Assembly: GCA_002699515.1 (NCBI GenBank)
Contig: PAAW01000052.1
Location: 1 to 41,383 of the forward strand
Direction of reading: 5' to 3'
From: Methanobacteriota archaeon
GTDB lineage: Archaea; Thermoplasmatota; Poseidoniia; Poseidoniales; Poseidoniaceae
Length of the DNA: 41,383 nt
Below the pieces are notes generated by a model. It was not told where the DNA came from. It did no database searches and saw only the letters and a program-made list of their open reading frames with translations. Below, piece by piece: positions 17,635-39,901 of this stretch. The translations under genes were made by a program, and so were the position numbers. Each line of letters begins with the position of its first letter. Within the stretch, counting starts at the first letter, position 1.

Positions 17635-20600
17635 TTATAAATTATTGTCTTCTTCAATAAACATTTTTGCTTGGTTTACCCATTGATCTCTTTTCACTCT
17701 ACCTGGGAAAAATTCAATCGCAACATTGACTTGATCTTCTAATTCTGTATCCATATTAGATACTTGCGAAAATGTATAAATTCCTAAAGCATTTAATTTC
17801 TCTTCTATAAATGGACCTATTCCTTTAGTTCTCTGTAAATCATCTTTATTGAAAATTATAGAACCTGCAGAAATTAATCTTTTTACTCCTGATACTCCTG
17901 TCAAGATATTTCCATCTTTAGCTTTCCACTTAATTGAAATATTTTCACCTGATGAATCATTAATGTAACCTAAACCTTGTTCTGGGAATTTTGATGCATC
18001 TTTTAAGGTGATTGTTTTTGCACCTTTCTCAATTTCGTCAGGAATTTCAGTAGATTCAGAAACACCAAGTTTATCAAAATCAATAAACTCTGCTTTTGCT
18101 TCAACTCTAGCTAATGATGCTTCTTTTTTAGATAATCCTTGTAACTTTTCTTCCATTTCAGCCATCTTTGCAGCCATTTGTGCTTCCATCTCGGCTAATT
18201 TTGATTCTGCATCGGATTCTACCTTCTCTTTTGCTTCCTGTTCTGCTTTCTTAATTCTCTCTTCTATTGCGGCTTTCTCTTCGGCTTCTTTCTTGACTTC
18301 TTCCTTTGCCTTTTCACGTGCCTCATCTTCGGCTTTCTTGATTCTCTCTTCAGTCTCAACTTTTTCTCTTGCTTCACGTTCTACTTTTTCACGCGCTTCG
18401 TCTTCAGCTTTCTTAATTCTAGCTTCTTCCGCAGCTGCTTTTTCCGCAGCTTTTTCCGCAGCTTTTTCAGTTTCGTCTTCGGCATCTGATTCATTGTCTT
18501 CTATTTCTTTTTCAGCCTGTTCAATTGCTTCAGGACTTCCAACAACAGTTACACTCCATGTAACATATACAGATGCATTTCCAATTCTGATATTACCAAT
18601 AAATTCACCATATGGTGTTTGAGTTCCAAATGCTGCTTTGTTATCATTGAATTGTAATCTAAAGACTATGGAACCAAATCCTTCTTCTTCATCATCATCA
18701 TCTTGAACTTCAATAAGATCCATACTAAATCTGTTTTCATTTTCTACAGAATCTAAATCTTCAACTCTTATTTCTGTTCCTAATTGAAGTTTAGTAATTG
18801 TAATTGTTTCTTTGCTTTCAACACTATCTCCCATATTAACCCCTTTAATTGGAGAAAGTACAAACGGTTCTCTTCGTGTTCCTTTTCCAACAGCAACCGC
18901 TGGCTCAAAAGTAGTATTTCCAGGCTGAGGGCCAACATTTACTCCTAAAGCCATTAATACATTATTTCCTTTTTCTCCAGCAAGGAAAACTAAAGGAATT
19001 AATAAGGCTAATAAAAGGAATAATAATGCACAGCACCACCAATAAGTCATAAATTCAAATGTAGATTCTGATTCAACACTGATACAAGTTAATCCTTCTG
19101 GAGGAGTGCTTGCATTACTAAGTGGGTTCGAACCACATGCAATTTCATCTTTATCTAGCCATGTATCATTATCATCATCTAAATCTTCAACTAGTGGAGG
19201 AATAGAGGTTGATGTACCAATTAAAGTATCTGGATCTCCATCGCCATCAGTATCTTTCGATGCTGAGGGATCATTAGGGAATGCATCATTTGCATCAACA
19301 ACCCCATCATCATCACTATCTTGATCTAAAACATCACAAAAGCCATCACCGTCTAAATCTAATGGTGTACTCGTATTATCTAATGGATCTGTACTACAAA
19401 CATCTTCCCATGAATCAATCCATTCATCATTATCATCGTCAGTATCTTCATTATTACCAATTCCGTCATTATCTGTATCAATCCATTCAGTAATATCATA
19501 CGGGAATGCATCTAAATCATCAACCCAACCATCATTATCATCATCTTCATCAAGTGAATCGCATAATCCATCTACATCTTGGTCAGCTGGTTTATCTGCT
19601 GAATTATTACTTGATGTCCCACAAGCATTTTCCATTCCATCAGACCAACCATCTTGATCTGAATCTTGCAATAATGCATCACAAACATCTGGTTCATCGG
19701 GTGAAGAAAATATCGGAATTGATGATTCATTTAATGGATCTGATGAACATAATAATTCTTCTGAATCAATCCATTCATCATTATCATCATCATCATCAAT
19801 TTCATCACAGATAGTGTCTCCATCTGTGTCTGTTGGTTTAATACTACTATTCAATGAATTAGAATTACACAGTGTTTCCATTTCATCTGTCCAACCATCA
19901 CCATCATCGTCATCGTCATAAATATCTGGCACGGTATCCAAATTAGTATCTAGCAATACAGAAATTGTAATCTCAAAGCTTGCTGTGGTCATTGAATTTT
20001 GTGATGTGATTGTGAAAACAGTTGGAGGTAATAATTCAGTAGGCGTACCTGAGATCATGCCCTCAAAATCATTAGAACGTGCAAGATTTATGGCAACTCC
20101 ACTATATTCATTAAATACCAAACCTTCTGGTAATTCTGGGCTAATTTCCCAAGTTAAAATCCCTCCACCTTCTAAAATTGGTTTTTGTGCAGGCATTGGC
20201 ATATTCAATGAAAGTTCCAAATTAATATTTGGATATGCCATAATAATTGGCGCATCATCGAAATCGTCTAGCAAGTCACAAATTCCATCTAAATCTATAT
20301 CCGAAGGATAATCATTAGAATCTAACGGATTATATTGTCCTGGAACTGAACTACATGCAATTTCTTCGGCATCTGTCCAATTATCATTATCATCATCAAT
20401 GTCCATCCAATATTCTGTATTTGTTTCATCTCCATCTGGCTTACCATCTGCATCATAATCTGTTAATACTGCTAAAGATATTGTAAATGAGTCAATTAAT
20501 GATGGATCAATTCCTACTGCTGTAATTGTATACTCAAGTTCAGGTCTAAGTTCTAAAGGAACTCCCCAAATTGCGCCTTCTGATTCACTAAAATACAAAC

Positions 20601-23600
20601 CATCTGGTAAATCTGGGCTTATATCCCAAGTTGCAACTGCAACTCCTTGAGACGATGGCACGAATTCATTTTGTATTGGATAGTTTATTGCCAAATTAAA
20701 TTCATCATACGGGTAAAATATGTATAATCCAGTACCATTTACAGCCATTTCGAAATAAGTTGTACTGCTACCTCCTGAATTATACGCTGTAATTGTATAA
20801 TTATAATTGGTATTCTGTACTGGAATTCCACTAATTCTTCCATTAGAATCTATTGTAATTCCTGTAGGCAATGATGGTGAAACTTCAAAGTATTCTATAG
20901 GTCCGCCAGTATTTGTTACAATAATAGGGATAATAGGGGCGTCTTTCTTTACTTCGTAGAAATATTCAGGATAAGTAATATTAGGTGCTGGTTCAACAAT
21001 AGTAAACATAATTATTTGTCCTGAATCACATACATCCCAACTATTACATGATTTAATTTTGAATAATTGAGATGTTAAATTTTGAGTAGGGGTTCCTGAA
21101 ATGACTCCAGTACTTGTATCAAGAGTTATTCCTGAAGGTAATTCATTTGGCTCTACCATAAAATAACTGAGATACTCAGGTGTTTGAATATCTGGAGTTA
21201 AAGTATCCATTGGTTCTCCTTTAACAAGATTATACTCTAGAATGTCGATATTTGTCCAGTTAGCAACATCAAATTCAACTATAGGAATCTCTGGCGCTAT
21301 TCCAAATGTTATATTCACAGAAATTGTTCTTAGAACTGGTGTTGAAATTGTAGCATTAAGCATGTAAGTAAAATTTGTATTTGTAAAATTAACTGGAGTT
21401 CCATAAATACGTCCATAATTAGCATCAAAATTTAATCCCTCAGGCAGATCTGGATAAATTGACCAAGTTACAAATTCTTCATAAGATGAATCATAATTAT
21501 ATGTACTTCCCATTGCTAAAATATCACTATAAGTGTTATTTGCAGGAGCCATATAAGAAATTGTATGATCTATTTCTCCAAAGACCCTATACATTCTTGC
21601 AGAACCACTAGAAGAAAATGATTGCCCATTTGAATATTCAGTAGCCGCTGTAGTACCTCCCCATTGTTGAGAATTCATTTCAGCAATAAAATATGGTAAC
21701 TCAAATTGATCTAAACCGAAATCATAAATCCAATTACTACTACTTCCTCCATTTGTACCACTGAAATAAGTTTGGAAACCATCTGAGTTAATTCCCAATA
21801 AATGGAAATATGAGCCGACATTAGAATTTTCTGCATCTATCAAAATATGTACTTCATCGTTACTATCAATTACAGACCTTAATTGTCCAGCATTACTTTT
21901 AGATCCATAATTATTACAACTGTTCCAAATTAAATCTCCAGTTGTACTCATTCTAGCTGCACAAAGCCAACCTTTTTCTGAGGTTGAAAATGTAGTAATA
22001 TTTCCTGCAAAATTTAAATCTCCAGCATCATTGTCAAACGAAGAATATACTATAGAGATACTACCATCACTATATTCCTCAATTGACGGTAAAACTTCAT
22101 TCATGCCTCCAGTATATGTGATATTCTCAGCCCATTGCCATGTTCCTGAAGAATCTAAATGAGCAATAAATGTACTATAGAATGTTGCAGCCGCAGGATC
22201 AAGAACAGTACTTCCAAAACCTAATGCCACTTTTCTAAATTTACCAATCATTGTTGCCGAGCCATCAGAATGTGAGATTACATCTGTATATGCATAACTA
22301 GAGACATCATTACAAGTGTAAGATGAAGAAACAGAAGATTCTAGGTGAGTGGGTGACGAAATCCATGAAATGGAACCTAATGAATCTAATCTTGAAACAT
22401 ATGGAGTGTAATAACCGATACAAGATAATCCATAATCAACTGCTACCCCACCAAAAGTAATTGTTTGTGATGATTGTGTTTTTGCACTAAAAGAAACTGT
22501 TACTTCTCCATTACTTTCTACTGATATTCCTGAATCTGGGGTTACATCAAAGATTCTCAGGCCATTGGGTGATTGGGGTGAATCTGAGTTAGTAACCCAT
22601 AACAAATTACCATTTTCATCATATTTAGCTACAAAAATATCTCTCTCATTAGTTGACTCGAAATCGAAACTTGGCGATTCTGAGAATCTAACATCACAAC
22701 TTGAACTAGTTAATCCTTGATATTCAACAAGTACATATAAATTATTAGAATCATCAATTTCTAAATCTTTAACATCTCCAGAACATAATTTAATTGTTCT
22801 AACCCAATCCCATTTCTTATCTATTCCTCTTTTCGCAACAAATATATCATCACTATCATGTGCAGGTAATACTGGAACTCCTTCAAAATATTCACCTGTA
22901 CCTGTATTAGAATAATAAGAACTAGAGAAAAACATTGACCCTTCATTTCCAAATCTTACTTGATTGCCCTTATGTCCGTTTACATCTCCAGAGTTAGAAT
23001 TCTGTTGTGTAACTGGCAATACTTCATATCCAGATAATAATGGTGATTGATCCCATATCTTAATTGTGAGATTTAGTGAAAAAGGATCATTAGAAGAAGT
23101 AGTAGTAATTTCATAAATAGTACCAACCAAATCCATTTCCAAGGGTATTCCAGTAATATCTCCAGTAGTTGAATCAAAGTTTAATCCCTCTGGTAATTGA
23201 GGAGAAATTGAAATTGATGTTGGTTTCAAACCAGTAAATGTTGTAAGATATCCTTCATTCTCAGTATTAACTTCGAATACAAGTTCTGTTGTTTCATATT
23301 CTAGAGTAGCTTGATCTAATGCGTCACAAGTTCCATCTCCATCTGCATCACCAGGGAAATCATTTACATCAATAGACTGAGAATATTTACCCAAATAATT
23401 TATTTGACTATAAGCAGCATTTGTGCCAGAGCCAACTGAACTGAAAATATAGGGGTCATCATAATCATCAACTATAATTGAAACAGATTTAATGTAATTT
23501 ACATTCCACGACATAAAAACTCTGACAATTTGAGATTCCCAGACACTAGTTAATTCATTAAATGTTGTGTAATATGTACTACCATTACTATGATCAACCC

Positions 23601-26600
23601 AAGTTAAATGTGGTTTATTGGCACTATCAAGAACAAAATCTAATCCATGATTATTCGTTTGGCTAGGAATTGTTGTATTAAATTGAGATTCCCAACCATT
23701 TGATTTTTCTTCAAGATAATATAAGGCACCGTCATTCATGTAAACTAGGTGTGGAGCACCGTTTGAATCTATTAATAACTCTGAACTTAAAGAAGAAATA
23801 ACTGAATTTGAATTTACGGATCCATCGATTAGAACGCCATTTGACCAATTTGAATTAAAAGACTTGTTCCAACTTCTTAATCCTCCTGCGAGGCCTTCAG
23901 CAATAAAATATAATTCTCCATATTCATCGAAAGCAATTTGTGCGAATCCATCTTTTGCGTCGTCAGGATATGCTAAAGACTCTGTAAATGTTTCATTAGT
24001 AATGTCATACACTTGTAATTCTGTATTTGAAGTAAGATAGATGTTCCCATTAGGTGAAATCGCCATATCTGTGTAATCATAACTCTTACCTGTAATTGAT
24101 CCAAGGTTTTCAATATTTTGATCAAGAGTTGCAAAGTTTGTGTTTCCACTTAAAACATCTAATTTATACAAATAGCCTGCTGATGCAATATATGTAATAT
24201 CATCATAATGTGAAAATTCTGAAAAATATCTATATTGTTTATATGAATTCGAATTCGAATTTATATTCATAAATGTTTCTCCTTGTGCTGACGTTGAAGT
24301 ATCATCACCATATCTGTAAATTGATGGATAACCGTTTCTACTATTTCCAAATGTATTTAATATTCCATTTTCATCAAAGAACATATTTCCTTTAGAGTAG
24401 TACATATTCATTCTATAACCACTATTCATTGTTAAAAATTCGTGTCTTGGTTCGCATATACTTTCTTGGATGTCTGTCCATCCATCATCATCATCATCAG
24501 TATCGAATTTGTTACACAAATAATCTCCATCTGTGTCCAAAGGTATTGAAGAAGAATCTATTGGATCTGTATCACATGCTGTTTCATTCAAATCAGTCCA
24601 TGTATCGTCATCATCATCAAGATCTTCTACTAAATTAGTAATACAATCTACGACAATTGAATCTGGTTTCCCGTCATTGTCAGTATCTAAATATGCACAT
24701 GGATCTAATACGAATTTATCATCAACATCTAATGATCCATCATTATCATCATCTGTATCCCATAGATCAATCGTTCCATCATCATCAGTATCTTTAGGTT
24801 TTAACCAAATATCTGAAGCGGGTAAATTATTACCCATTGAATCTGCTTGAGTTCCTACAGCATTGGTATTTTCATGAGCTAATTGACCGAATCCATTATT
24901 CCCCCAACACCTTACTTGCCCATCTTCTCTAATAGCACAAGTTGAAAGATAACCTAACGCTAATGATTCAGCATTTCCTCCAATATCTGTAATTATGAAA
25001 TTATCACCAATATCTGAAATAGAATCTCCAATAGTGCTTGTTGTTTCAGTTCCTAGTTGTCCATTTGAACCTATACCCCAGCATCTTACATTTCCATCGG
25101 AATTTATAGCACAAGAATGAGGAGTTCCCGTAGAGTAATAATTTAAATTCAATTCTCCTTTTGAAATATATAATTGTTGGGTTTTTATATCAGTTCCAAA
25201 ATCTACAGCAACTAAATTATCACCCATTTCTGATTCGGAATCTCCCACATTTGAAGATGGATTACTTCCAGTACCTAATCTTCCGTAGCTATTAGCACCC
25301 CAACAATACACTTCTCCATCTGTTGCTAATGCACAGGAAATTGCTTGACCTGTGGAAATTTTGAAAACACCTCTATCAGAACCTAAGTCTATAAATCTAA
25401 AATCTGAATTTGAACCTAAAGCCGAGTTTCCAAGAGTACTAGTTGTTTTACCAATTCCTAATTCACCAGCCTTATTATCTCCCCAACATTTCATTAATCC
25501 ATTTTCTAATATTGCACAAGAGTGGTCATAACCCAGGGAAATATCTAACGCCTTCATTTCATTACCAAAGTCTACAGCATCATCTGCTATACCTGTATTC
25601 CAAGTATTACCTACTCCAAGTTGACCTACACCATTTGCACCCCAACATTTTACATCACCATCTTCAAACAATGCGCAGTTATGATAACTTCCTGCACTTA
25701 ATTTCACAATATTAGAATTTGTTGTACCGAAATTAATTGGAGTTAATGAATCCCCCATCTCATTAGGATTATCTCCAAAATTATAGCTATTTGATGCACT
25801 ACTGACTTGATTGTACTGATTATCTCCCCAACATACTACCTCCTCAGTATTTAGTAATGCACATACATGAGTTGCTCCTGCAACTATTTGTTTGGCTGTT
25901 CTATTAGTTCCTAAATTTACGAACTGAAGGAATTTTCCAGTTTCATTTACGTTATCACCATATTGAGTATTGTTTCCAATTCCTAATTGACCTTCATGAT
26001 TTCTACCCCAACATTTTACTAATCCTTGAATTGATCTTGCACAATAAAAATCTGTTCCTGCTGCAATTTCCTCAACTCTGTAAAATGTTTTTGAAATATC
26101 TGGTGTTTTGAATGATGTTATCAAATCATCACCAAAACCAATATCTCCATCTTGCACCCAATCTGACGGTTCAGTAAACCCACTAAAGTGAACCCATCCT
26201 AATCCCATTTGGCCATACGTATCCTCTCCCCAACACATTATTCTGTAATCGGAAGAAACAGTATCTGAATTAAATAAAGCACACGAATGATGCCCATTTA
26301 CTGAAACTTCAACTGGAGTATAACCTGTAGGCAAAGATGTCACTGTAACTGGAAGGTTAGATGAAGACATACCTGAATTTCCGTCCCCTAATTCACCAAT
26401 TGATTCTTCTCCCCAACATTTTATTGAGACTTCAACAATTGCACAAACATGTCTTTGTCCAACAGAAATTGAAGTAATTAAATCGGAAGGATCGTCCTTA
26501 AGATCACCTACTTCAGTTCCATTAATACTTGGAGATCCACTTCCTAACATTACAGTACCATCAACACCTAATCCCCAACATCTTGTTTCATCTAATGCTC

Positions 26601-29600
26601 CTCCTAAGGAACAAGTAACATCTTGACCTGCGCTCAATGCCTTGAATAAATAATCTGGTTTAACAAGACCAATTCCTCCAACTCCTTCATGGTCAACTCT
26701 TACCAATGAACTACTATCTGTAGATACTGTTGAACTATTTCCAAGTGTCATGGTGTTTGAACCTCCATTGTATCCCCAACAGTAGGCGTTATCTTCAGAA
26801 TTTGTTACACAATTATGTCTTTTACCTGCGGTAATTGAATCAATAAAGCCAACATCTGATTCAATTATAATCTTTTTAGGTATACTAGAATCTTGTCCAG
26901 AAATTAATGCTTTACTTGTTTGGATTTCGATATCATCAATCCATACAGTATCTAATCCTAAAATATTATTTGCATCTTTATCATATTCCCATGTAAATGT
27001 ATGAATCCCAGTTCCAAATGAGGAAGTATTTTGGGTCCAAGTATTAGATACACCACTCCATTCGCCCATTAGTAACCCATCAATGTAAAATTTTAATTTG
27101 TCAGAAGTATCTGTAGAGGTCTTATATGAAAAAGTTATGTTTCCACCATAAGTATCAACTGTTGTTGAAAAAGAAGATGTAGAACTTGGACTCATAATAT
27201 CTGGAGATTTCCAAGAATATGTTGAACCATCAATATCTGTAGTACCGTCTTGAACCCAAGAATTCGTAATATCTTGGTCCCAATCTAAGTTTAAATCAAC
27301 AAGTCCATCGACTCCTGTATCTGCGAATGTTTCAGCCACAACTACATTACTATCAAATTCATAATATTCTCCAAGTTGTTTATCACTACCACTACCCCAA
27401 CAATATACTTCTCCATTACTTGTAGTTGCACATGTATGTTCATCTCCAGCAGAAACTGATAGAATTGTAACATCCTCATCAAAAGAAACAAACGTTGGTA
27501 ATTCTTCAGCTGATGTATTGCCTAATCCCAATTGTCCTTTATCATTAGCACCCCAACACATTACACTTCCATTATTACTTACAGCACAAGTATGGCTTGT
27601 TCCAGAATCCATAGAAATTACTGTGAAATCTTCAGGTAAATCTACTTCAAGCATATAATCTACTACATTCGAAGGTTCAGCATTTGCTGTAATGCTACCT
27701 AATTGTCCTTGATCATTATGGCCCCAGCACGCTACTTTTCTACTATCTAAAGTTGCACAACTGAAATCATCACCAGTTGAAATTACACTTGATTCGCCAA
27801 TTGCAGGACTGTCATCTTTAGTATCAAATCTATCACAAATTCCATCTTTATCAAAATCAGCTGGAATACTTGTTTCATCGAATCTGTCGGTTAAACATCT
27901 AATTTCATCTAAACCGTTCCATCCATCTCCATCAGAATCAACGTACAATCCTGTTCCAGAGTACCCAATATTGCTCACTACCCAAATATCGCCATAATCT
28001 GCAGTATAATCTGCAATCCATAATCTTCCAGAATGATCGATTAAAATTGAAAGTGATGTTGGTTGTAAAGTAAATACTAATTCTGGGGTTGTCCAAACAC
28101 CCTCTGACCTATGGATAATTTGTAATTGTCCTGAATTATTGAATGCTAAGTAAGGTTCGTGATCAGCATCAATTGCTAAATCAAAAATTCCAGTATCATA
28201 AGGTAATGTTTCATTTTGCCAATTATTAATTGAATCACAACTTCCTGAACAAGAAGAATAAATTAATCCTAAATCATATGTTTCGTGAACAACATGTACT
28301 GAATCATCTGGAGAGATACTAATTGCAATAGAAGAGTTTTCATCATTTCCATAGGCTGATGAATTTAATGAAAAGTTTGTAGAAGTACCATCTGAAAGTA
28401 AATGATAATATGTTAATGAGTCATTGTTAAGATCTCCGTCTCCATCATCAAAAATACCTACAATATGTATTGTATTCTCTGAATCAATTGCAGCATCAAA
28501 ATTATCTGTTACTCCAAGTTCATCATGTTGACTAGCGGTCCAAGATGGTCCTGAACTACATGAAGAAGAACATTTATGAGACCACAAAGTTCCACCTCCA
28601 AGTATTGATACTATCTCTAAAGTGTCATCTGTGTGTAAAACTAATTCTAAATTTGTTGCAACTCCACTTAATGCAAGTGTAACCCATCTTCCATTTTCTT
28701 TTGTAGTATAATGAATCTCATCAGCTGAATCTCCAACTTCTGAATGAACTATATGAGGGACGTCATTAGAATCTACTACAATATCTAAATCTGTTATTCC
28801 TCCAGTACTTTCTCCTAATAGTTCAATCGTCCAAAGACCATTGACATATGTTGCAAATCTCAACCTATCATCATTACCACTGGTATATACTAACGCAGGA
28901 CATCCATCGGAACGTAAAGTCATTGAATTGAATTTACCAATCTCTGCAGTAGAAGCATCAAGTTGGTGAAGTTCCATACTGGGGTTAGTTGCAGTGAATA
29001 ATTCATTACAATCATCACCTTCAAAAGTATCATCTAATTTTAATTCAACATCATCTGTTGGCATATCTAAATTATCATCACCTTTGAAAGCTAAATCCTC
29101 ATATCCTAGTCTACCATTACTTGCAGTACCCCAACATTTGATTCCATTAGTTGTTAAAATTACACAAGCGAATTTATCTCCAACTTCTATACGGTCTGCA
29201 GAACCTCCAACATTAACAGGCTGTAATGAATTACCCATTTCGTTAAAACCGTCTCCACGATCTAATGTATCTCCAAGTCCTAATTGTCCTACATCATTTT
29301 GCCCCCAACATTTTACTTGTGCATTATCTAATATTGCACAAACACTTGTTGTACCTGCATCAATTTCTACAGCATATCTAGAAGTTCCTAAATCAACAAC
29401 TCCTAATGAATTGCCCATTTCTCCACCTTGATCACCTATATCATTAGTATTCTCAATACCTAATTGACCAAATTGGTTATCTCCCCAACATACTGTATCT
29501 GAATTATTTAATATTGCACAAGTGAATCCATCTCCCGCAGTAATATTTACAGCAGTGTTACCGTTTGGAAATGATACAAATCCAAGGTTTGAACCCATTT

Positions 29601-30429
29601 CACTGCCTTGATCTCCAATATCGTCTGTATTTTCAATACCTAATTCTCCATTATCATTGCTACCCCAACAAGAAACTGCCCCATCATCCCATATCGCACA
29701 AGTATGTGTTTTGCCTAATGCTAATTGTGAAACATTTCTACCTGGAGGTAGTTCTACAGTTGCAAAATTATCTCCAACTTCATCTAAATCGTCACCTAAA
29801 TATGATGAGTTGCCCATTCCTAATTGTCCATAATCATTTGCACCCCAACAGATTAAATCATCATTATCTAATTCCACACAAGTATGTCCTGCCCCAGCTT
29901 CCATCATTACGGCATTACGACCTGATGGCAATGATAGAGAAGGAAGCATGTCTCCAGTTTCTAAATATCCGTCACCAAAACCATCTTCGCTTGCTGACAT
30001 ACCTAAACCTAAAGCAGCAACATTACCCCAACATTTTATTGAGTTATCATCCAATAATACACAACTATGTTCATCTCCAAGAGCAAGTGAAATTGGAATA
30101 AGTCCTGTTCCTAAATCTAAAAATGGTAAATTCATGCCCATTTCTCCTGTTTCATCACCTAAATCAAGAACATTTCCAATTCCGAGTTGGCCATCAGAAC
30201 CTTGTCCCCAGCATTTTACAGCTCCTGTAGCACTAATTGCACAAGAATGGGCATCTCCAAGTTCAATTTGAACTGCTGTTCCAGTCGCACCTGAAAATTT
30301 ATTTTCTTGCTCAAATATTTCTTCATTGTGTTCAATTTGATCTGTATTATTGAAATAATATGCTTGTGTCATTAATACCATAAGTAAGGCGTATAATATT
30401 GCTGTGCGGAATCTAGAGTTGTTGCGCAT
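17635..30429 (-). CDS. Giant (4264 aa) secreted membrane-anchored multidomain protein: RCC1 repeats, beta-propeller-like blocks, putative Ig (He_PIG-like), TSP3-like repeats, single TM, cytosolic coiled coil and HhH domain
   Basis: N-terminal hydrophobic signal; many HSCAIxxxGxVxCWGxNxxGQLG repeats; LPEGLxFDxxTGxIxGTP repeats; DxDxDGxxD repeats; WWCCALLFLLLALLIPLVFLAG TM; KAEDEAREK coiled coil; LQRTKGIGPFIEEKLNALGIYTFSQV at the C-terminus. Confidence 0.93.
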   Translation of the reverse strand: MRNNSRFRTAILYALLMVLMTQAYYFNNTDQIEHNEEIFEQENKFSGATGTAVQIELGDAHSCAISATGAVKCWGQGSDGQLGIGNVLDLGDETGEMGMNLPFLDLGTGLIPISLALGDEHSCVLLDDNSIKCWGNVAALGLGMSASEDGFGDGYLETGDMLPSLSLPSGRNAVMMEAGAGHTCVELDNDDLICWGANDYGQLGMGNSSYLGDDLDEVGDNFATVELPPGRNVSQLALGKTHTCAIWDDGAVSCWGSNDNGELGIENTDDIGDQGSEMGSNLGFVSFPNGNTAVNITAGDGFTCAILNNSDTVCWGDNQFGQLGIENTNDIGDQGGEMGNSLGVVDLGTSRYAVEIDAGTTSVCAILDNAQVKCWGQNDVGQLGLGDTLDRGDGFNEMGNSLQPVNVGGSADRIEVGDKFACVILTTNGIKCWGTASNGRLGYEDLAFKGDDNLDMPTDDVELKLDDTFEGDDCNELFTATNPSMELHQLDASTAEIGKFNSMTLRSDGCPALVYTSGNDDRLRFATYVNGLWTIELLGESTGGITDLDIVVDSNDVPHIVHSEVGDSADEIHYTTKENGRWVTLALSGVATNLELVLHTDDTLEIVSILGGGTLWSHKCSSSCSSGPSWTASQHDELGVTDNFDAAIDSENTIHIVGIFDDGDGDLNNDSLTYYHLLSDGTSTNFSLNSSAYGNDENSSIAISISPDDSVHVVHETYDLGLIYSSCSGSCDSINNWQNETLPYDTGIFDLAIDADHEPYLAFNNSGQLQIIHRSEGVWTTPELVFTLQPTSLSILIDHSGRLWIADYTADYGDIWVVSNIGYSGTGLYVDSDGDGWNGLDEIRCLTDRFDETSIPADFDKDGICDRFDTKDDSPAIGESSVISTGDDFSCATLDSRKVACWGHNDQGQLGSITANAEPSNVVDYMLEVDLPEDFTVISMDSGTSHTCAVSNNGSVMCWGANDKGQLGLGNTSAEELPTFVSFDEDVTILSVSAGDEHTCATTSNGEVYCWGSGSDKQLGEYYEFDSNVVVAETFADTGVDGLVDLNLDWDQDITNSWVQDGTTDIDGSTYSWKSPDIMSPSSTSSFSTTVDTYGGNITFSYKTSTDTSDKLKFYIDGLLMGEWSGVSNTWTQNTSSFGTGIHTFTWEYDKDANNILGLDTVWIDDIEIQTSKALISGQDSSIPKKIIIESDVGFIDSITAGKRHNCVTNSEDNAYCWGYNGGSNTMTLGNSSTVSTDSSSLVRVDHEGVGGIGLVKPDYLFKALSAGQDVTCSLGGALDETRCWGLGVDGTVMLGSGSPSINGTEVGDLKDDPSDLITSISVGQRHVCAIVEVSIKCWGEESIGELGDGNSGMSSSNLPVTVTSLPTGYTPVEVSVNGHHSCALFNSDTVSSDYRIMCWGEDTYGQMGLGWVHFSGFTEPSDWVQDGDIGFGDDLITSFKTPDISKTFYRVEEIAAGTDFYCARSIQGLVKCWGRNHEGQLGIGNNTQYGDNVNETGKFLQFVNLGTNRTAKQIVAGATHVCALLNTEEVVCWGDNQYNQVSSASNSYNFGDNPNEMGDSLTPINFGTTNSNIVKLSAGSYHNCALFEDGDVKCWGANGVGQLGVGNTWNTGIADDAVDFGNEMKALDISLGYDHSCAILENGLMKCWGDNKAGELGIGKTTSTLGNSALGSNSDFRFIDLGSDRGVFKISTGQAISCALATDGEVYCWGANSYGRLGTGSNPSSNVGDSESEMGDNLVAVDFGTDIKTQQLYISKGELNLNYYSTGTPHSCAINSDGNVRCWGIGSNGQLGTETTSTIGDSISDIGDNFIITDIGGNAESLALGYLSTCAIREDGQVRCWGNNGFGQLAHENTNAVGTQADSMGNNLPASDIWLKPKDTDDDGTIDLWDTDDDNDGSLDVDDKFVLDPCAYLDTDNDGKPDSIVVDCITNLVEDLDDDDDTWTDLNETACDTDPIDSSSIPLDTDGDYLCNKFDTDDDDDGWTDIQESICEPRHEFLTMNSGYRMNMYYSKGNMFFDENGILNTFGNSRNGYPSIYRYGDDTSTSAQGETFMNINSNSNSYKQYRYFSEFSHYDDITYIASAGYLYKLDVLSGNTNFATLDQNIENLGSITGKSYDYTDMAISPNGNIYLTSNTELQVYDITNETFTESLAYPDDAKDGFAQIAFDEYGELYFIAEGLAGGLRSWNKSFNSNWSNGVLIDGSVNSNSVISSLSSELLIDSNGAPHLVYMNDGALYYLEEKSNGWESQFNTTIPSQTNNHGLDFVLDSANKPHLTWVDHSNGSTYYTTFNELTSVWESQIVRVFMSWNVNYIKSVSIIVDDYDDPYIFSSVGSGTNAAYSQINYLGKYSQSIDVNDFPGDADGDGTCDALDQATLEYETTELVFEVNTENEGYLTTFTGLKPTSISISPQLPEGLNFDSTTGDITGIPLEMDLVGTIYEITTTSSNDPFSLNLTIKIWDQSPLLSGYEVLPVTQQNSNSGDVNGHKGNQVRFGNEGSMFFSSSYYSNTGTGEYFEGVPVLPAHDSDDIFVAKRGIDKKWDWVRTIKLCSGDVKDLEIDDSNNLYVLVEYQGLTSSSCDVRFSESPSFDFESTNERDIFVAKYDENGNLLWVTNSDSPQSPNGLRIFDVTPDSGISVESNGEVTVSFSAKTQSSQTITFGGVAVDYGLSCIGYYTPYVSRLDSLGSISWISSPTHLESSVSSSYTCNDVSSYAYTDVISHSDGSATMIGKFRKVALGFGSTVLDPAAATFYSTFIAHLDSSGTWQWAENITYTGGMNEVLPSIEEYSDGSISIVYSSFDNDAGDLNFAGNITTFSTSEKGWLCAARMSTTGDLIWNSCNNYGSKSNAGQLRSVIDSNDEVHILIDAENSNVGSYFHLLGINSDGFQTYFSGTNGGSSSNWIYDFGLDQFELPYFIAEMNSQQWGGTTAATEYSNGQSFSSSGSARMYRVFGEIDHTISYMAPANNTYSDILAMGSTYNYDSSYEEFVTWSIYPDLPEGLNFDANYGRIYGTPVNFTNTNFTYMLNATISTPVLRTISVNITFGIAPEIPIVEFDVANWTNIDILEYNLVKGEPMDTLTPDIQTPEYLSYFMVEPNELPSGITLDTSTGVISGTPTQNLTSQLFKIKSCNSWDVCDSGQIIMFTIVEPAPNITYPEYFYEVKKDAPIIPIIVTNTGGPIEYFEVSPSLPTGITIDSNGRISGIPVQNTNYNYTITAYNSGGSSTTYFEMAVNGTGLYIFYPYDEFNLAINYPIQNEFVPSSQGVAVATWDISPDLPDGLYFSESEGAIWGVPLELRPELEYTITAVGIDPSLIDSFTISLAVLTDYDADGKPDGDETNTEYWMDIDDDNDNWTDAEEIACSSVPGQYNPLDSNDYPSDIDLDGICDLLDDFDDAPIIMAYPNINLELSLNMPMPAQKPILEGGGILTWEISPELPEGLVFNEYSGVAINLARSNDFEGMISGTPTELLPPTVFTITSQNSMTTASFEITISVLLDTNLDTVPDIYDDDDDGDGWTDEMETLCNSNSLNSSIKPTDTDGDTICDEIDDDDDNDEWIDSEELLCSSDPLNESSIPIFSSPDEPDVCDALLQDSDQDGWSDGMENACGTSSNNSADKPADQDVDGLCDSLDEDDDNDGWVDDLDAFPYDITEWIDTDNDGIGNNEDTDDDNDEWIDSWEDVCSTDPLDNTSTPLDLDGDGFCDVLDQDSDDDGVVDANDAFPNDPSASKDTDGDGDPDTLIGTSTSIPPLVEDLDDDNDTWLDKDEIACGSNPLSNASTPPEGLTCISVESESTFEFMTYWWCCALLFLLLALLIPLVFLAGEKGNNVLMALGVNVGPQPGNTTFEPAVAVGKGTRREPFVLSPIKGVNMGDSVESKETITITKLQLGTEIRVEDLDSVENENRFSMDLIEVQDDDDEEEGFGSIVFRLQFNDNKAAFGTQTPYGEFIGNIRIGNASVYVTWSVTVVGSPEAIEQAEKEIEDNESDAEDETEKAAEKAAEKAAAEEARIKKAEDEAREKVEREAREKVETEERIKKAEDEAREKAKEEVKKEAEEKAAIEERIKKAEQEAKEKVESDAESKLAEMEAQMAAKMAEMEEKLQGLSKKEASLARVEAKAEFIDFDKLGVSESTEIPDEIEKGAKTITLKDASKFPEQGLGYINDSSGENISIKWKAKDGNILTGVSGVKRLISAGSIIFNKDDLQRTKGIGPFIEEKLNALGIYTFSQVSNMDTELEDQVNVAIEFFPGRVKRDQWVNQAKMFIEEDNNL

Positions 30430-35491: not shown

Positions 35492-36400
35492 ATGTTTGAG
35501 CGTATGGATGAGGATGCAATTCTCGGAAATTTTTTGGGCCTCCCAGAAAACGAAAATGAACCCGATATTATCATTGCATCAATACCTTATGAATTGACTA
35601 CCTCTTATGGCCAAGGCACGGAAAATGGCCCTGCTGCATGTATTGAAGCAAGTACTCAAGTTGAATTATATGACGATCTACTAAATGATAATTTACCAGC
35701 AGGTGCAAACTTACGGACTGTTGAACCTTGGGATGGTGTAGGTAATTCATTAAGTGAACAATTAGAGGGCATTAAAAAATACGCTAAAGTGCAATATTCT
35801 ACAAATGCATTTCCGATATTTCTTGGAGGAGAACATGGAATACTTCCACCAATTATCGAGGCAATTGAGTCTCCTGTTACGATAGTACAAATTGATGCTC
35901 ATGCTGACTTAAGAGATGAATTAGATGGTGAACCTTTCTCACATGCTTGTGCTGCTGCAAGGGCATTAGATGCTGGAGCAATTCAACTATATCAAATAGG
36001 AATTAGGGCATATTCTAAGGAAGAATTAGAAAAAATAAATTCTGACAGTAGAATTAATACATGGTTCAGTAGAGATATTATGAGCCCTTGTACTGGTGAA
36101 AAATATTGGAATGAATGGATTTCTGAAATATCAAAAATCAAGGGCCCTATTCACTTAACAATAGATATTGACGGATTAGATGGATTATTAGTACCTTCTA
36201 CGGGGACTCCTGTACCTGGAGGCTTGTCATATTGGCATGCAATCCAAACTATTGAAACATTAATTATGAACTGTAACGTAATTAGCGCTGATGTAAACGA
36301 AATTGTACCTCAAAAGGAAACAAAACTTACTGAATTTACTGCTGCAATGTTAGTAACAAAAATTATTGCCACAAAAATAAATAGAATGACACAAGGGTGA
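35492..36400 (+). CDS. speB: Agmatinase/arginase (ureohydrolase) family protein
   Basis: FLGGEHGI, VQIDAHADLRDE, FSHACAAA, HLTIDIDGLDG, STGTPVPGGLSYWHAI. ATG at 35492 is preferred over the TTG at 35453. Confidence 0.93.
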   Translation: MFERMDEDAILGNFLGLPENENEPDIIIASIPYELTTSYGQGTENGPAACIEASTQVELYDDLLNDNLPAGANLRTVEPWDGVGNSLSEQLEGIKKYAKVQYSTNAFPIFLGGEHGILPPIIEAIESPVTIVQIDAHADLRDELDGEPFSHACAAARALDAGAIQLYQIGIRAYSKEELEKINSDSRINTWFSRDIMSPCTGEKYWNEWISEISKIKGPIHLTIDIDGLDGLLVPSTGTPVPGGLSYWHAIQTIETLIMNCNVISADVNEIVPQKETKLTEFTAAMLVTKIIATKINRMTQG

Positions 36401-36404
36401 AAAT

Positions 36405-37709
36405 ATGGACTCATTACCACGAGGGAAACACGTCATAATTGATTGTAGTGGGGCATTTAATGCAAGTGGAGATATAGTACTCAAAATATTAGAAGATACA
36501 GTAGATGATTCAAATGCTAGAAGAGTTCATTCACACGTAGAAAATTTTGATGGGACGGTTTCACCTTTGGGGTTTGCTGCTGTAGTTTTAATTGATGAAA
36601 GCCACGTTACTGCACATTGCTATTCAGAGATTGGATTATTGGCAATTGACATATTTACCTGTGGAAATACTAATCCTGATTTATTAGCGGATGAAATAGA
36701 AATTAAATTGATGGAGGTTTTACCAGAACTTGTAATCAATAATCGTGAATCTGTACCTCGATTTACTATAACAAAACAAAATATTAATCTCCAAAATTTT
36801 GTTAATACTCACTTTAACCACTTTAATGCAGGTGAACTTCGTAAATGTGCCATTAGTCTCAAACAATTTTTAAATTCCAATGGGAGATTAATGGTGACTT
36901 TAAGTGGTGCTATGAGTACTGCAGAAATTGGTAAATCTTTAGCACCATTAATTAGGTCTGGTAAAGTTCATGCAATTACTTGTACAGGTGCAAATCTGGA
37001 AGAAGATTTATTCAATCTTGTAGCACAAAAATCTTACAAAAAAATCTCGAATTGGAGAAATTTATCTCTAGAAGACGAAAAAGAATTACACGAACAAGGA
37101 TATAATCGTATTACAGACGTATGCATTCCTGAAGATGAGGCTATAAGACATATAGAATCAAAAATATTAGAAGAATGGAGATCTAAATCAGCCTTTCCAC
37201 ATGAACATATTTTTGCAATTATGGAAGATTTAAATTATGATATTTCAACTGAAGATTCATGGTTATTAGCAGCAAAAAATGCAAATATACCAATCTATGT
37301 ACCTGGATGGGAAGATTCAACTCTTGGAAATATTTTTGCAGCACATTGCCTATCTAATAATTGTAAGATAGGTGCGATAAAAGGAGGTACTGAATATATG
37401 TTACACTTAGCAAATTGGTATAAAGAATCTAATTATCCAGTGGGTTTTCTACAAATTGGAGGAGGTATAGCAGGAGACTTTCCAATTTGTGTAGTTCCAA
37501 TGTTAAGACAAGATTTAGGAGAAAATGTCCCATTATGGGGTTGGTTTGCTCAAATTAGTGAATCGAGTGCATCTTATGGAGGATATTCAGGAGCTGTACC
37601 GAGTGAAAAGATTACTTGGGGGAAACTCTCTACTGAAACTCCTATGTTTATTATTGAAAGTGATGCTACAATTGTCGCACCAATTCTATTTTCATATATT
37701 TTAGATTAA
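36405..37709 (+). CDS. Fusion protein: N-terminal SpeD (AdoMetDC)-like pyruvoyl decarboxylase domain + C-terminal deoxyhypusine synthase-like (homospermidine synthase-like) domain
   Basis: N-term GKHVIIDCSGAF...LIDESHVTAHCYSEIGLLAIDIFTCG; C-term ITCTGANLEEDLFNLVA, NIPIYVPGWEDSTLGNIFAAH, FLQIGGGIAGDFPICVVPML, EKITWGKLSTETPMFIIESDATIVAPIL. Confidence 0.92.
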   Translation: MDSLPRGKHVIIDCSGAFNASGDIVLKILEDTVDDSNARRVHSHVENFDGTVSPLGFAAVVLIDESHVTAHCYSEIGLLAIDIFTCGNTNPDLLADEIEIKLMEVLPELVINNRESVPRFTITKQNINLQNFVNTHFNHFNAGELRKCAISLKQFLNSNGRLMVTLSGAMSTAEIGKSLAPLIRSGKVHAITCTGANLEEDLFNLVAQKSYKKISNWRNLSLEDEKELHEQGYNRITDVCIPEDEAIRHIESKILEEWRSKSAFPHEHIFAIMEDLNYDISTEDSWLLAAKNANIPIYVPGWEDSTLGNIFAAHCLSNNCKIGAIKGGTEYMLHLANWYKESNYPVGFLQIGGGIAGDFPICVVPMLRQDLGENVPLWGWFAQISESSASYGGYSGAVPSEKITWGKLSTETPMFIIESDATIVAPILFSYILD

Positions 37710-38626: not shown

Positions 38627-39901
38627 TCATTCATATTTATGCATATAATTGAATACTTGTGATTCTTCTTTTGAAAGGCCAGGGTATTTTTTCATATTTT
38701 TCACAGAATTCCAGCGGTCCATAAAAACTTGATTCTCCCAATCTGTCATCACCATTGGACGAATATATGACGAGCGGCAAACTGCCCTGGTGTTTCCTAG
38801 ATCACCTGCCACGGTATCAATTACTGCCAGCATTGATGCTAAACGTTCTTTTTCATCTGAACCTGGAATTTTATTGTTTTTAGCTAACTTTGAAAGGCCA
38901 TCTACACGTTTTAAATTAACACCTTTCCAATTTATCATGGGGTATTCTTCAAAAGCTGTCCCTTCTACTTCTTTTTTAGATTGTTCAAATAAATCAGGGA
39001 TTTTATTTATCTCTTCTTCCGTTGCTTCAGAAATTAAAGCTAAACGGTGTGCTGTTTTCCATGATGCTGCCCATGTACGAAAATCTTTAGCCGTATATTT
39101 TGTTTCTTCACCAGTACAAGAATCAAGATATTCATTGATATGTTCTGCTTTAAGATCTCTAGGATTTCCATTATCATCAACATACATGAATAAATCCTGT
39201 TCATCATCATCTCCACCAATTTTTTTAGATTCTTCAATCATTGAAACGATATCATCATCGATAATAAGTAATCTCCACCTTTTACCTGATTTGCCAGTAA
39301 AATCAAAAATTGCATCAATTTTTCCTTCAATGGCTTTTTTACCTTTTAACAACTCAAGATGCCCTTCTTTAATTGTTGTTAATCCGTAAGAAGCGTTCTC
39401 TTTTGCATATTGATCGGAACCTACACGAATATGATATAAATCCATTAATTTTATGACTAAAGCAGCAGATTTGAATTTAGGCATCCCTTTTACAAGTAAA
39501 TCATCTTTGACTCTAGCCCTTATTTCAACTAACCCTACCACAGCAAATTCATCAATTCCTGAGAACTTAATATCTGCTTTTACTGCATTCCATTCTGGAT
39601 GATAACGATACTGAAGCCTTCCTTTAGCATCTTTCCCTGTTGCTTGAATATGCCCTCTATCATTTGGATTAAACCAAACATCAACCCATGCAGGAGGAAC
39701 TACTAATGTATTAAAATCATTTATTCTCTCATCATCTTCTATTTTTTTACCAGAGGGTGAAAAATAATCCCAATACATTTTTTCTTTTTCACCTTCTTCT
39801 TTTGGAGGGACTACCACTTTTTTACGAGTAATTCCCTTTACTGTTCTATCACTAATGACTAGTCCGGCTAATTTGGCCGCCATGTTCGAATCGGTCTTCA
39901 C
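38627..39901 (-). CDS. DNA topoisomerase IB (poxvirus/bacterial-type)
   Basis: INDFNTLVVPPAWVDVWFNPNDRGHIQATGKDAKGRLQYRYHPEW; ALVIKLMDLYHIRVGSDQYAKENASYGLTTI; TAKDFRTWAAS; catalytic Tyr context CRSSYIRPMV. Confidence 0.95.
   Translation of the reverse strand: MKTDSNMAAKLAGLVISDRTVKGITRKKVVVPPKEEGEKEKMYWDYFSPSGKKIEDDERINDFNTLVVPPAWVDVWFNPNDRGHIQATGKDAKGRLQYRYHPEWNAVKADIKFSGIDEFAVVGLVEIRARVKDDLLVKGMPKFKSAALVIKLMDLYHIRVGSDQYAKENASYGLTTIKEGHLELLKGKKAIEGKIDAIFDFTGKSGKRWRLLIIDDDIVSMIEESKKIGGDDDEQDLFMYVDDNGNPRDLKAEHINEYLDSCTGEETKYTAKDFRTWAASWKTAHRLALISEATEEEINKIPDLFEQSKKEVEGTAFEEYPMINWKGVNLKRVDGLSKLAKNNKIPGSDEKERLASMLAVIDTVAGDLGNTRAVCRSSYIRPMVMTDWENQVFMDRWNSVKNMKKYPGLSKEESQVFNYMHKYE

What the first reader, a model, noticed from the sequence alone, without database searches (positions are those of the whole stretch)
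35492..37709. Agmatinase plus SpeD-like/DHS-like fusion: possible two-gene arginine-to-homospermidine pathway
Seen: an agmatinase ORF followed 4 bp later by a single ORF joining a SpeD-type pyruvoyl decarboxylase domain (ESH cleavage motif, downstream His and FTCG Cys retained) to a deoxyhypusine-synthase-like domain with the WGK catalytic-lysine motif. Known: DHS-like proteins in bacteria include homospermidine synthases, and SpeD homologues have been neofunctionalised as arginine or ornithine decarboxylases. Inference: the canonical HTWPEYG context is replaced by AHCYSEIG, so the SpeD domain may decarboxylate arginine rather than AdoMet. Arginine to agmatine (SpeD-like), to putrescine (agmatinase), to homospermidine (DHS-like) would then be encoded in two adjacent genes, with no need for decarboxylated AdoMet or a separate spermidine synthase.
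Basis: partly seen in the sequence, partly recalled or inferred. Interest (0 to 1): 0.85.

Follow-up and report, generated by a model that had tools for sequence, protein, structure and literature searches.

The report
Fused arginine decarboxylase–homospermidine synthase enzyme
A marine archaeon carries one gene that joins an arginine-decarboxylase-type domain to a homospermidine-synthase-type domain, next to an agmatinase gene; this is an apparently unreported fusion of two enzymes from a polyamine pathway that was already published for this group of archaea.

Summary
Window 35492-36400 encodes an agmatinase. Four bases later, 36405-37709 encodes a 434-aa protein with an N-terminal class-1b SpeD domain (Ser66, His71, Cys86 kept; the AdoMetDC proline is Ser74) and a C-terminal deoxyhypusine-synthase-fold domain (Lys407). 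Both folds are supported by Pfam, AlphaFold and Foldseek.

The proposed pathway, Arg to agmatine to putrescine to homospermidine, is well supported but not new. Li et al. 2023 (PMC10407285) described speDA-speB-speY clusters in marine group II archaea and showed that two such SpeDs decarboxylate arginine only.

What looks new is the fusion. It occurs in all 19 sampled genomes of five genera in one family of the order; the other loci examined have two adjacent genes. One or two fusion events explain this.

The genome keeps a separate canonical DHS. Spermidine synthase was found in none of 38 genomes, and other arginine or ornithine decarboxylases are almost entirely missing. The DHS-like domain forms a clade with bacterial proteins, distinct from canonical DHS, the NCBI 'homospermidine biosynthesis protein' family and caldomycin synthase. 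Its exact substrate is the main open point: the fused domains are steps 1 and 3, so direct use of agmatine (caldomycin-synthase-like) is a live but less likely rival.

The parts
35492..36400 (+). Agmatinase (SpeB/AUH, ureohydrolase family), 302 aa from the first ATG; the ORF is open from TTG 35453
   Evidence: PF00491 E=3.3e-51; TIGR01230 182 bits > 174.3; closest solved structure is 3pzl, agmatine ureohydrolase
36405..37709 (+). SpeDA-SpeY-like fusion, 434 aa, one ORF
   Evidence: PF02675 plus PF01916 in one frame; AlphaFold mean pLDDT 89.7; the same fusion in 19 genomes
36405..36773 (+). SpeD-type pyruvoyl decarboxylase domain; predicted self-cleavage before Ser66 (nt 36600)
   Evidence: PF02675 aa 9-99; alignment to 2iii and 1tlu; Ser/His/Cys kept in all 19 fusions
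36600..36662 (+). Self-processing and substrate motif SHVTAHCYSEIG...FTC: Ser66, His71, Ser74 (Pro in AdoMetDC), Cys86
   Evidence: residue roles from PMC10407285
36762..36788 (+). Inter-domain linker (about aa 120-128), low model confidence; unfused relatives have a stop and a new start codon here
   Evidence: pLDDT 67 for block 121-130; junction sequences
36822..37697 (+). Deoxyhypusine-synthase-fold domain (SpeY-like), catalytic Lys407 (W405-G406-K407), Glu401
   Evidence: PF01916; Foldseek to DHS structures, best E=6.6e-15, TM by target about 0.7

Best explanation
The two genes encode a complete, AdoMet-free route from arginine to homospermidine. The SpeD domain self-cleaves between Glu65 and Ser66, giving a 7.0-kDa beta chain and a 41.1-kDa chain that carries the N-terminal pyruvoyl group and the whole DHS-like domain. 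It decarboxylates arginine to agmatine. The adjacent agmatinase hydrolyses agmatine to putrescine and urea. The DHS-like domain, using NAD and an enzyme-imine on Lys407, joins two putrescines into homospermidine. The separate canonical DHS in the genome is then free to modify aIF5A, probably with homospermidine as aminobutyl donor. The fusion arose once or twice when adjacent speDA and speY genes of an ancestral operon lost the stop and start codons between them. Shown: gene content, domains, catalytic residues, distribution, separate DHS, lack of SpeE. Inferred: both activities, cleavage, direction of flux, substrate of the DHS-like domain.
For: SpeD residues for processing are kept and the AdoMetDC proline is lost in all 19 fusions, the marker that Li et al. 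give for SpeDA. SpeDs from Ca. Poseidoniales and marine group II/III, encoded next to speB and speY, were assayed as arginine-only decarboxylases and failed to restore spermidine synthesis. No spermidine synthase in 38 genomes; pyruvoyl ArgDC in 1 of 38; PLP Orn/Arg decarboxylase family in 1 of 38; no OKR decarboxylase over cut-off. All 19 fused loci have agmatinase directly upstream, and a genome without linked agmatinase has it elsewhere. A separate canonical DHS is present (369 bits > 350). The DHS-like domain scores best against the homospermidine-biosynthesis model, shares with that family the loss of the DHS His and Asp, and falls outside the DHS clade with full support.
Against: The DHS-like domain passes no NCBIfam cut-off (128 of 450 bits for the homospermidine model) and sits on a very long branch away from that family. 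None of the papers read reports an assay shown to be of this clade. The fused domains catalyse non-consecutive steps, with agmatinase between them. Published kcat/Km for the SpeDs of this group is low (64-180 per M per s). The genome is only 72% complete.
Confidence: 0.74

Rival explanations
1. Caldomycin-type route: the DHS-like domain couples two agmatines, made by the SpeD domain on the same chain, into bis-guanidino-homospermidine, and the agmatinase then removes both guanidino groups to give homospermidine. The fused domains would then be consecutive steps.
For: This chemistry is proven for a DHS homologue of Thermus with a ureohydrolase. It explains why steps 1 and 3 rather than 1 and 2 are fused. 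Glu136 and Glu293 of caldomycin synthase have Glu counterparts in the window protein.
Against: The domain scores only 86 of 500 bits against the caldomycin-synthase model and falls in a different clade. Guanidine-binding Ser67 is Ala and Phe204 is Asn. Li et al. report speDA with speY in genomes that use agmatine deiminase instead of agmatinase, which fits putrescine as the substrate if those SpeYs are of this clade. One planctomycete member sits beside PLP arginine decarboxylase and an agmatinase-like gene, which fits either model.
Confidence: 0.14
2. The DHS-like domain is a second deoxyhypusine synthase that moves an aminobutyl or agmatinyl group to aIF5A, with agmatinase finishing the modification, as proposed for Haloferax.
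For: Agmatinase, DHS and aIF5A genes cluster in Euryarchaeota and a direct agmatine model is favoured in Haloferax. DHS fold and catalytic Lys are kept.
Against: A separate canonical DHS is in the genome. The His and Asp that all seven DHS rows keep are Asp and Tyr here. The domain lies outside the DHS clade and has close relatives in bacteria.
Confidence: 0.05
3. The SpeD domain is a true AdoMet decarboxylase and the protein feeds an aminopropyl transfer pathway.
For: AdoMet_dc family membership; sequence alone separates SpeDA from SpeD poorly.
Against: No spermidine synthase in 38 genomes; AdoMetDC proline lost; assayed SpeDs from the same group lacked AdoMetDC activity.
Confidence: 0.04
4. 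One domain has lost activity and the fusion is mainly structural or regulatory.
For: Fusions with a dead second SpeD domain exist in bacteria.
Against: Self-processing residues of SpeD and the Glu/Trp/Lys of the DHS-like domain are kept in all 19 fusions.
Confidence: 0.03

Closest known systems
speDA-speB-speY clusters of Ca. Poseidoniales and marine group II/III (Li et al. 2023, PMC10407285)
   Same: Same three functions, same group of archaea; SpeDAs assayed as arginine decarboxylases with no AdoMetDC activity
   Different: Described as clustered genes, with no mention of a SpeDA-SpeY fusion; here speDA and speY are one ORF. The fusions that paper describes are SpeD-SpeD, in bacteria
SpeY, DHS-like homospermidine synthase (NCBIfam NF001980 / PRK00770)
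   Same: DHS fold, catalytic Lys, aromatic residue where DHS has Asp, DHS His lost
   Different: 128 of 450 bits; separate clade on a long branch; bacterial relatives at 50-59% identity lie in the window protein's clade
Caldomycin synthase CdmS (NCBIfam NF002699; Kobayashi et al. 2024, PMC10981699)
   Same: DHS fold and Lys; works with a ureohydrolase towards homospermidine
   Different: 86 of 500 bits; Ser67 and Phe204 not kept; separate clade
Canonical archaeal deoxyhypusine synthase (PRK01221)
   Same: Fold, GGG motif, Lys
   Different: A separate canonical copy is in this genome; DHS His and Asp replaced; outside the DHS clade
Bacterial SpeD-SpeDC fusions (PMC10407285)
   Same: Two polyamine enzymes on one self-cleaving pyruvoyl polypeptide
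   Different: There both domains are SpeD homologues (AdoMetDC plus ODC); here the partner is a DHS-like enzyme of another fold

Membership tests
SpeDA (AdoMetDC-derived arginine decarboxylase) | Class-1b AdoMet_dc domain | tested here: met
   PF02675 E=8.7e-15; aligned to 2iii and 1tlu
SpeDA (AdoMetDC-derived arginine decarboxylase) | Ser, His and Cys of self-processing | tested here: met
   Ser66, His71, Cys86; kept in 19 of 19 fusions
SpeDA (AdoMetDC-derived arginine decarboxylase) | Loss of the proline conserved in true AdoMetDC | tested here: met
   Ser74; Ser or Ala in all 19 fusions; marker
SpeDA (AdoMetDC-derived arginine decarboxylase) | SpeD present without spermidine synthase | tested here: met
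   PF01564 in 0 of 38 genomes
SpeDA (AdoMetDC-derived arginine decarboxylase) | Clade with assayed SpeDA proteins | not tested
   Sequences AIF02979 and DAC51064 were not in hand; 45-56% identity to unfused SpeDs of the same order
SpeDA (AdoMetDC-derived arginine decarboxylase) | Arginine decarboxylation, no AdoMetDC activity | not testable with these tools
   Needs an assay
SpeY (DHS-like homospermidine synthase) | DHS fold and catalytic Lys | tested here: met
   PF01916, Foldseek, Lys407
SpeY (DHS-like homospermidine synthase) | Distinct from the genome's DHS | tested here: met
   Separate DHS at C22, 369 > 350 bits; clade test
SpeY (DHS-like homospermidine synthase) | NCBIfam NF001980 equivalog cut-off | tested here: not met
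   128.5 of 450 bits; so not a member of that model, although Li et al. use the name speY for the gene in this position
SpeY (DHS-like homospermidine synthase) | Homospermidine from putrescine | not testable with these tools
   Needs an assay
Caldomycin synthase CdmS | NCBIfam NF002699 cut-off and clade | tested here: not met
   86 of 500 bits; separate clade
Caldomycin synthase CdmS | Residues Ser67, Phe204, Leu286, Glu293, Glu136, Asp143 of the agmatine model | tested here: inconclusive
   Ala, Asn, Tyr, Glu, Glu, Glu; agmatine use itself untested
Canonical deoxyhypusine synthase | DHS-clade placement and DHS His/Asp | tested here: not met
   Outside the DHS clade, 100/99 support for DHS; His to Asp, Asp to Tyr
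Agmatinase | NCBIfam TIGR01230 cut-off | tested here: met
   182 > 174.3 bits
True AdoMet decarboxylase | Conserved proline and a SpeE partner | tested here: not met
   Ser74; no SpeE

The most novel reading that the evidence does not exclude
The fused enzyme hands agmatine directly from its pyruvoyl domain to its DHS-like domain, which couples two agmatines; the adjacent agmatinase acts last. This would be a second, independently evolved caldomycin-type route, from a clade of DHS homologues not known to do it.
Probability: 0.12. Interest if true: 0.65.

Novelty: new variant of a known kind. Interest (0 to 1): 0.4.

Why it matters
Marine group II archaea are abundant in the ocean. A fused, PLP-free and AdoMet-free homospermidine enzyme makes their polyamine chemistry testable with two genes. 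The protein would be a self-cleaving pyruvoyl enzyme whose mature chain carries a second enzyme of unrelated fold. It also points to an untested, widespread clade of DHS homologues (Chloroflexota, Deinococcota, Gemmatimonadota, Elusimicrobiota, Bdellovibrionota, archaea) whose substrate, putrescine or agmatine, is undecided.

Tried and rejected
Stop-codon read-through in relatives with one in-frame stop between the domains: rejected; a start codon follows the stop within about 20 bases and stop identity varies. Assembly artefact: rejected; 19 genomes share the fusion. A disrupted fusion in G118, which shows a TAG: the stop lies at the very start of the SpeD frame, and in the similar record L086 the stop sits just before the ATG, so it was counted as fused. 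A single origin of the fusion: not rejected (concatenated tree needs 2 changes, AU p=0.289; the SpeY-only tree needs 3). Lack of agmatinase in the second family: rejected for one genome, where agmatinase lies on another contig. Gene neighbours of the bacterial relatives to learn the substrate: mostly uninformative. Fusion or SpeY in phages: no match among annotated phages; the viral-contig search gave no answer three times. aIF5A with PF01287: no hit in G000, but the Haloferax control also missed, so uninformative.

Full report
Observation. Pfam finds AdoMet_dc at residues 9-99 and deoxyhypusine synthase at 140-431 in one frame. The agmatinase passes the NCBI agmatinase cut-off. AlphaFold, from an alignment of 35 sequences, gives two well-folded domains (mean pLDDT 89.7) joined by a weak linker near residue 121-130. 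Foldseek matches the C-terminal part to DHS structures and the N-terminal part to viral SpeD models.

Catalytic residues. Ser66, His71 and Cys86 match the T. maritima processing residues, and the proline that marks true AdoMetDC is Ser74. Lys407 and Glu401 match the DHS Lys and Glu. All of these are kept in all 19 fusions, except that the Ser74 position is Ala in one. Eight of 32 unfused homologues read WEK instead of WGK; the Lys stays.

Distribution. In 146 genomes of the order, 140 have the gene pair or part of it. A single unbroken ORF is found in five genera of the window's own family: all 6 genomes of the own genus, 8 of g10, 1 of g8, 2 of g2 and 2 of g5. The 32 other loci examined have two adjacent genes with a short junction. 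A tree of the SpeY part needs three changes of the fused state. The concatenated tree needs two, and a single fused clade is not rejected (AU p=0.289). So the fusion most likely arose once or twice; gain and loss cannot be told apart from the counts. Bacterial relatives of the DHS-like domain are not fused and have no SpeD beside them.

Genome context. A canonical DHS lies elsewhere in the same genome. Spermidine synthase is absent from 38 of 38 genomes, including 20 that are at least 90% complete. Pyruvoyl ArgDC occurs in one, the PLP Orn/Arg decarboxylase family in one, and no OKR decarboxylase is over cut-off. The SpeD domain is therefore the only likely source of agmatine in nearly all of these genomes. 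Agmatinase is directly upstream in all 19 fused loci. Seventeen of 32 unfused loci, all in the second family, have no agmatinase upstream; those examined have an aminotransferase-like ORF there instead. One such genome (G034; about 1.24 Mb read as stretches) carries agmatinase on another contig, 51% identical.

What the DHS-like domain is. Its nearest relatives outside the order are bacterial, at 50-59% identity, from Chloroflexus, Meiothermus, Gemmatimonadaceae, Elusimicrobia, Bdellovibrionales and others. Archaeal DHS is about 30% identical. In a tree with DHS, the NCBI homospermidine-biosynthesis family and caldomycin synthase, each group is a clade, and the window protein's clade stands alone with full support on a long branch. 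It passes no NCBI equivalog cut-off; the best is the homospermidine model at 128 of 450 bits. It shares with the homospermidine family the loss of the DHS His (KHH motif) and an aromatic residue where DHS and caldomycin synthase have Asp. Of the residues proposed for agmatine binding in Thermus caldomycin synthase, Ser67 and Phe204 are Ala and Asn here, while Glu293 and Glu136 have Glu counterparts. The mapping rests on a constant offset of -4 between the Thermus numbering and the Trichormus homologue L075. Sequence therefore leans to a putrescine-type homospermidine synthase but does not settle it.

Literature. Li et al. 2023 (PMC10407285) found speDA clustered with speB and speY in a marine group II/III clone and a Ca. 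Poseidoniales genome, and showed that both SpeDs decarboxylate arginine only and do not restore spermidine. The fusions they describe are SpeD-SpeD in bacteria. Five searches of the held library for a SpeDA-SpeY fusion or for marine group II polyamine work found no report of it; papers outside that library were not seen. Kobayashi et al. 2024 (PMC10981699) show that a DHS homologue can couple agmatine, with a ureohydrolase finishing homospermidine. That is the strongest rival, because it would make the fused steps consecutive. The virosphere paper (PMC9992855) notes that homospermidine can serve as aminobutyl donor for hypusination, so lack of spermidine need not block the canonical DHS.

Mechanism. 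Cleavage before Ser66 would leave a 65-residue beta chain (7.0 kDa) and a 369-residue chain (41.1 kDa) with pyruvoyl at its N-terminus and the DHS-like domain behind it (masses). Equal amounts of the first and last enzymes would follow automatically; channelling is possible but untested.

Organism. The record titles of the nearest loci name Euryarchaeota, Candidatus Poseidoniaceae and Candidatus Thalassarchaeaceae archaea, so the window most likely comes from a marine group II archaeon (Poseidoniales). That is an inference; the genome itself is unnamed.

Verdict. Real, well-formed and conserved; the pathway is known, the fusion appears new, and the DHS-like clade's substrate is open. The window genome is 72% complete, so absences rest on its relatives.

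Noticed in passing
L015, L017, L020, L021, L026, L028, L046, L047, L051, L052, L055, L056 (second family of the order): In 17 of 32 unfused loci the gene upstream of speD-speY is not agmatinase; in the 12 examined it is an aminotransferase-like ORF of about 390 aa, with an enolase-like ORF on the opposite strand downstream. In one genome of this kind agmatinase is unlinked (L157:6929-7822).
   Followed up: partly
L090, L094-L136 (excluding the archaeal L130): A widespread bacterial clade of DHS homologues, 50-59% identical to the fusion's C-terminal domain; those scanned pass no NCBI family cut-off and most have no polyamine gene beside them, so the enzyme's substrate is unassigned.
   Followed up: partly
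L063, L064, L065 (same class, other family): Relatives in the same class carry caldomycin-synthase-like DHS homologues (L063: 373 of 500 bits) instead of the SpeY-like clade; two of the three genomes also show a canonical DHS (L067, L069).
   Followed up: partly
L075 (Trichormus variabilis plasmid A, 2914-3957): A plasmid gene annotated deoxyhypusine synthase passes the NCBI caldomycin-synthase cut-off (592 > 500 bits).
   Followed up: no
window 17635-30429 (-): A 4264-aa predicted surface-type protein with many RCC1-like repeats, Asp-rich repeats and a long charged C-terminal stretch (read by eye from the translation).
   Followed up: no
window 38627-39901 (-): Topoisomerase IB (Topoisom_I plus Top1B_N_bact domains).
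   Followed up: no
L091, contig CALDQY010000162.1: A contig binned as Rhodobiaceae carries a speB-speD-speY operon of the Poseidoniales type, probably a binning error.
   Followed up: no
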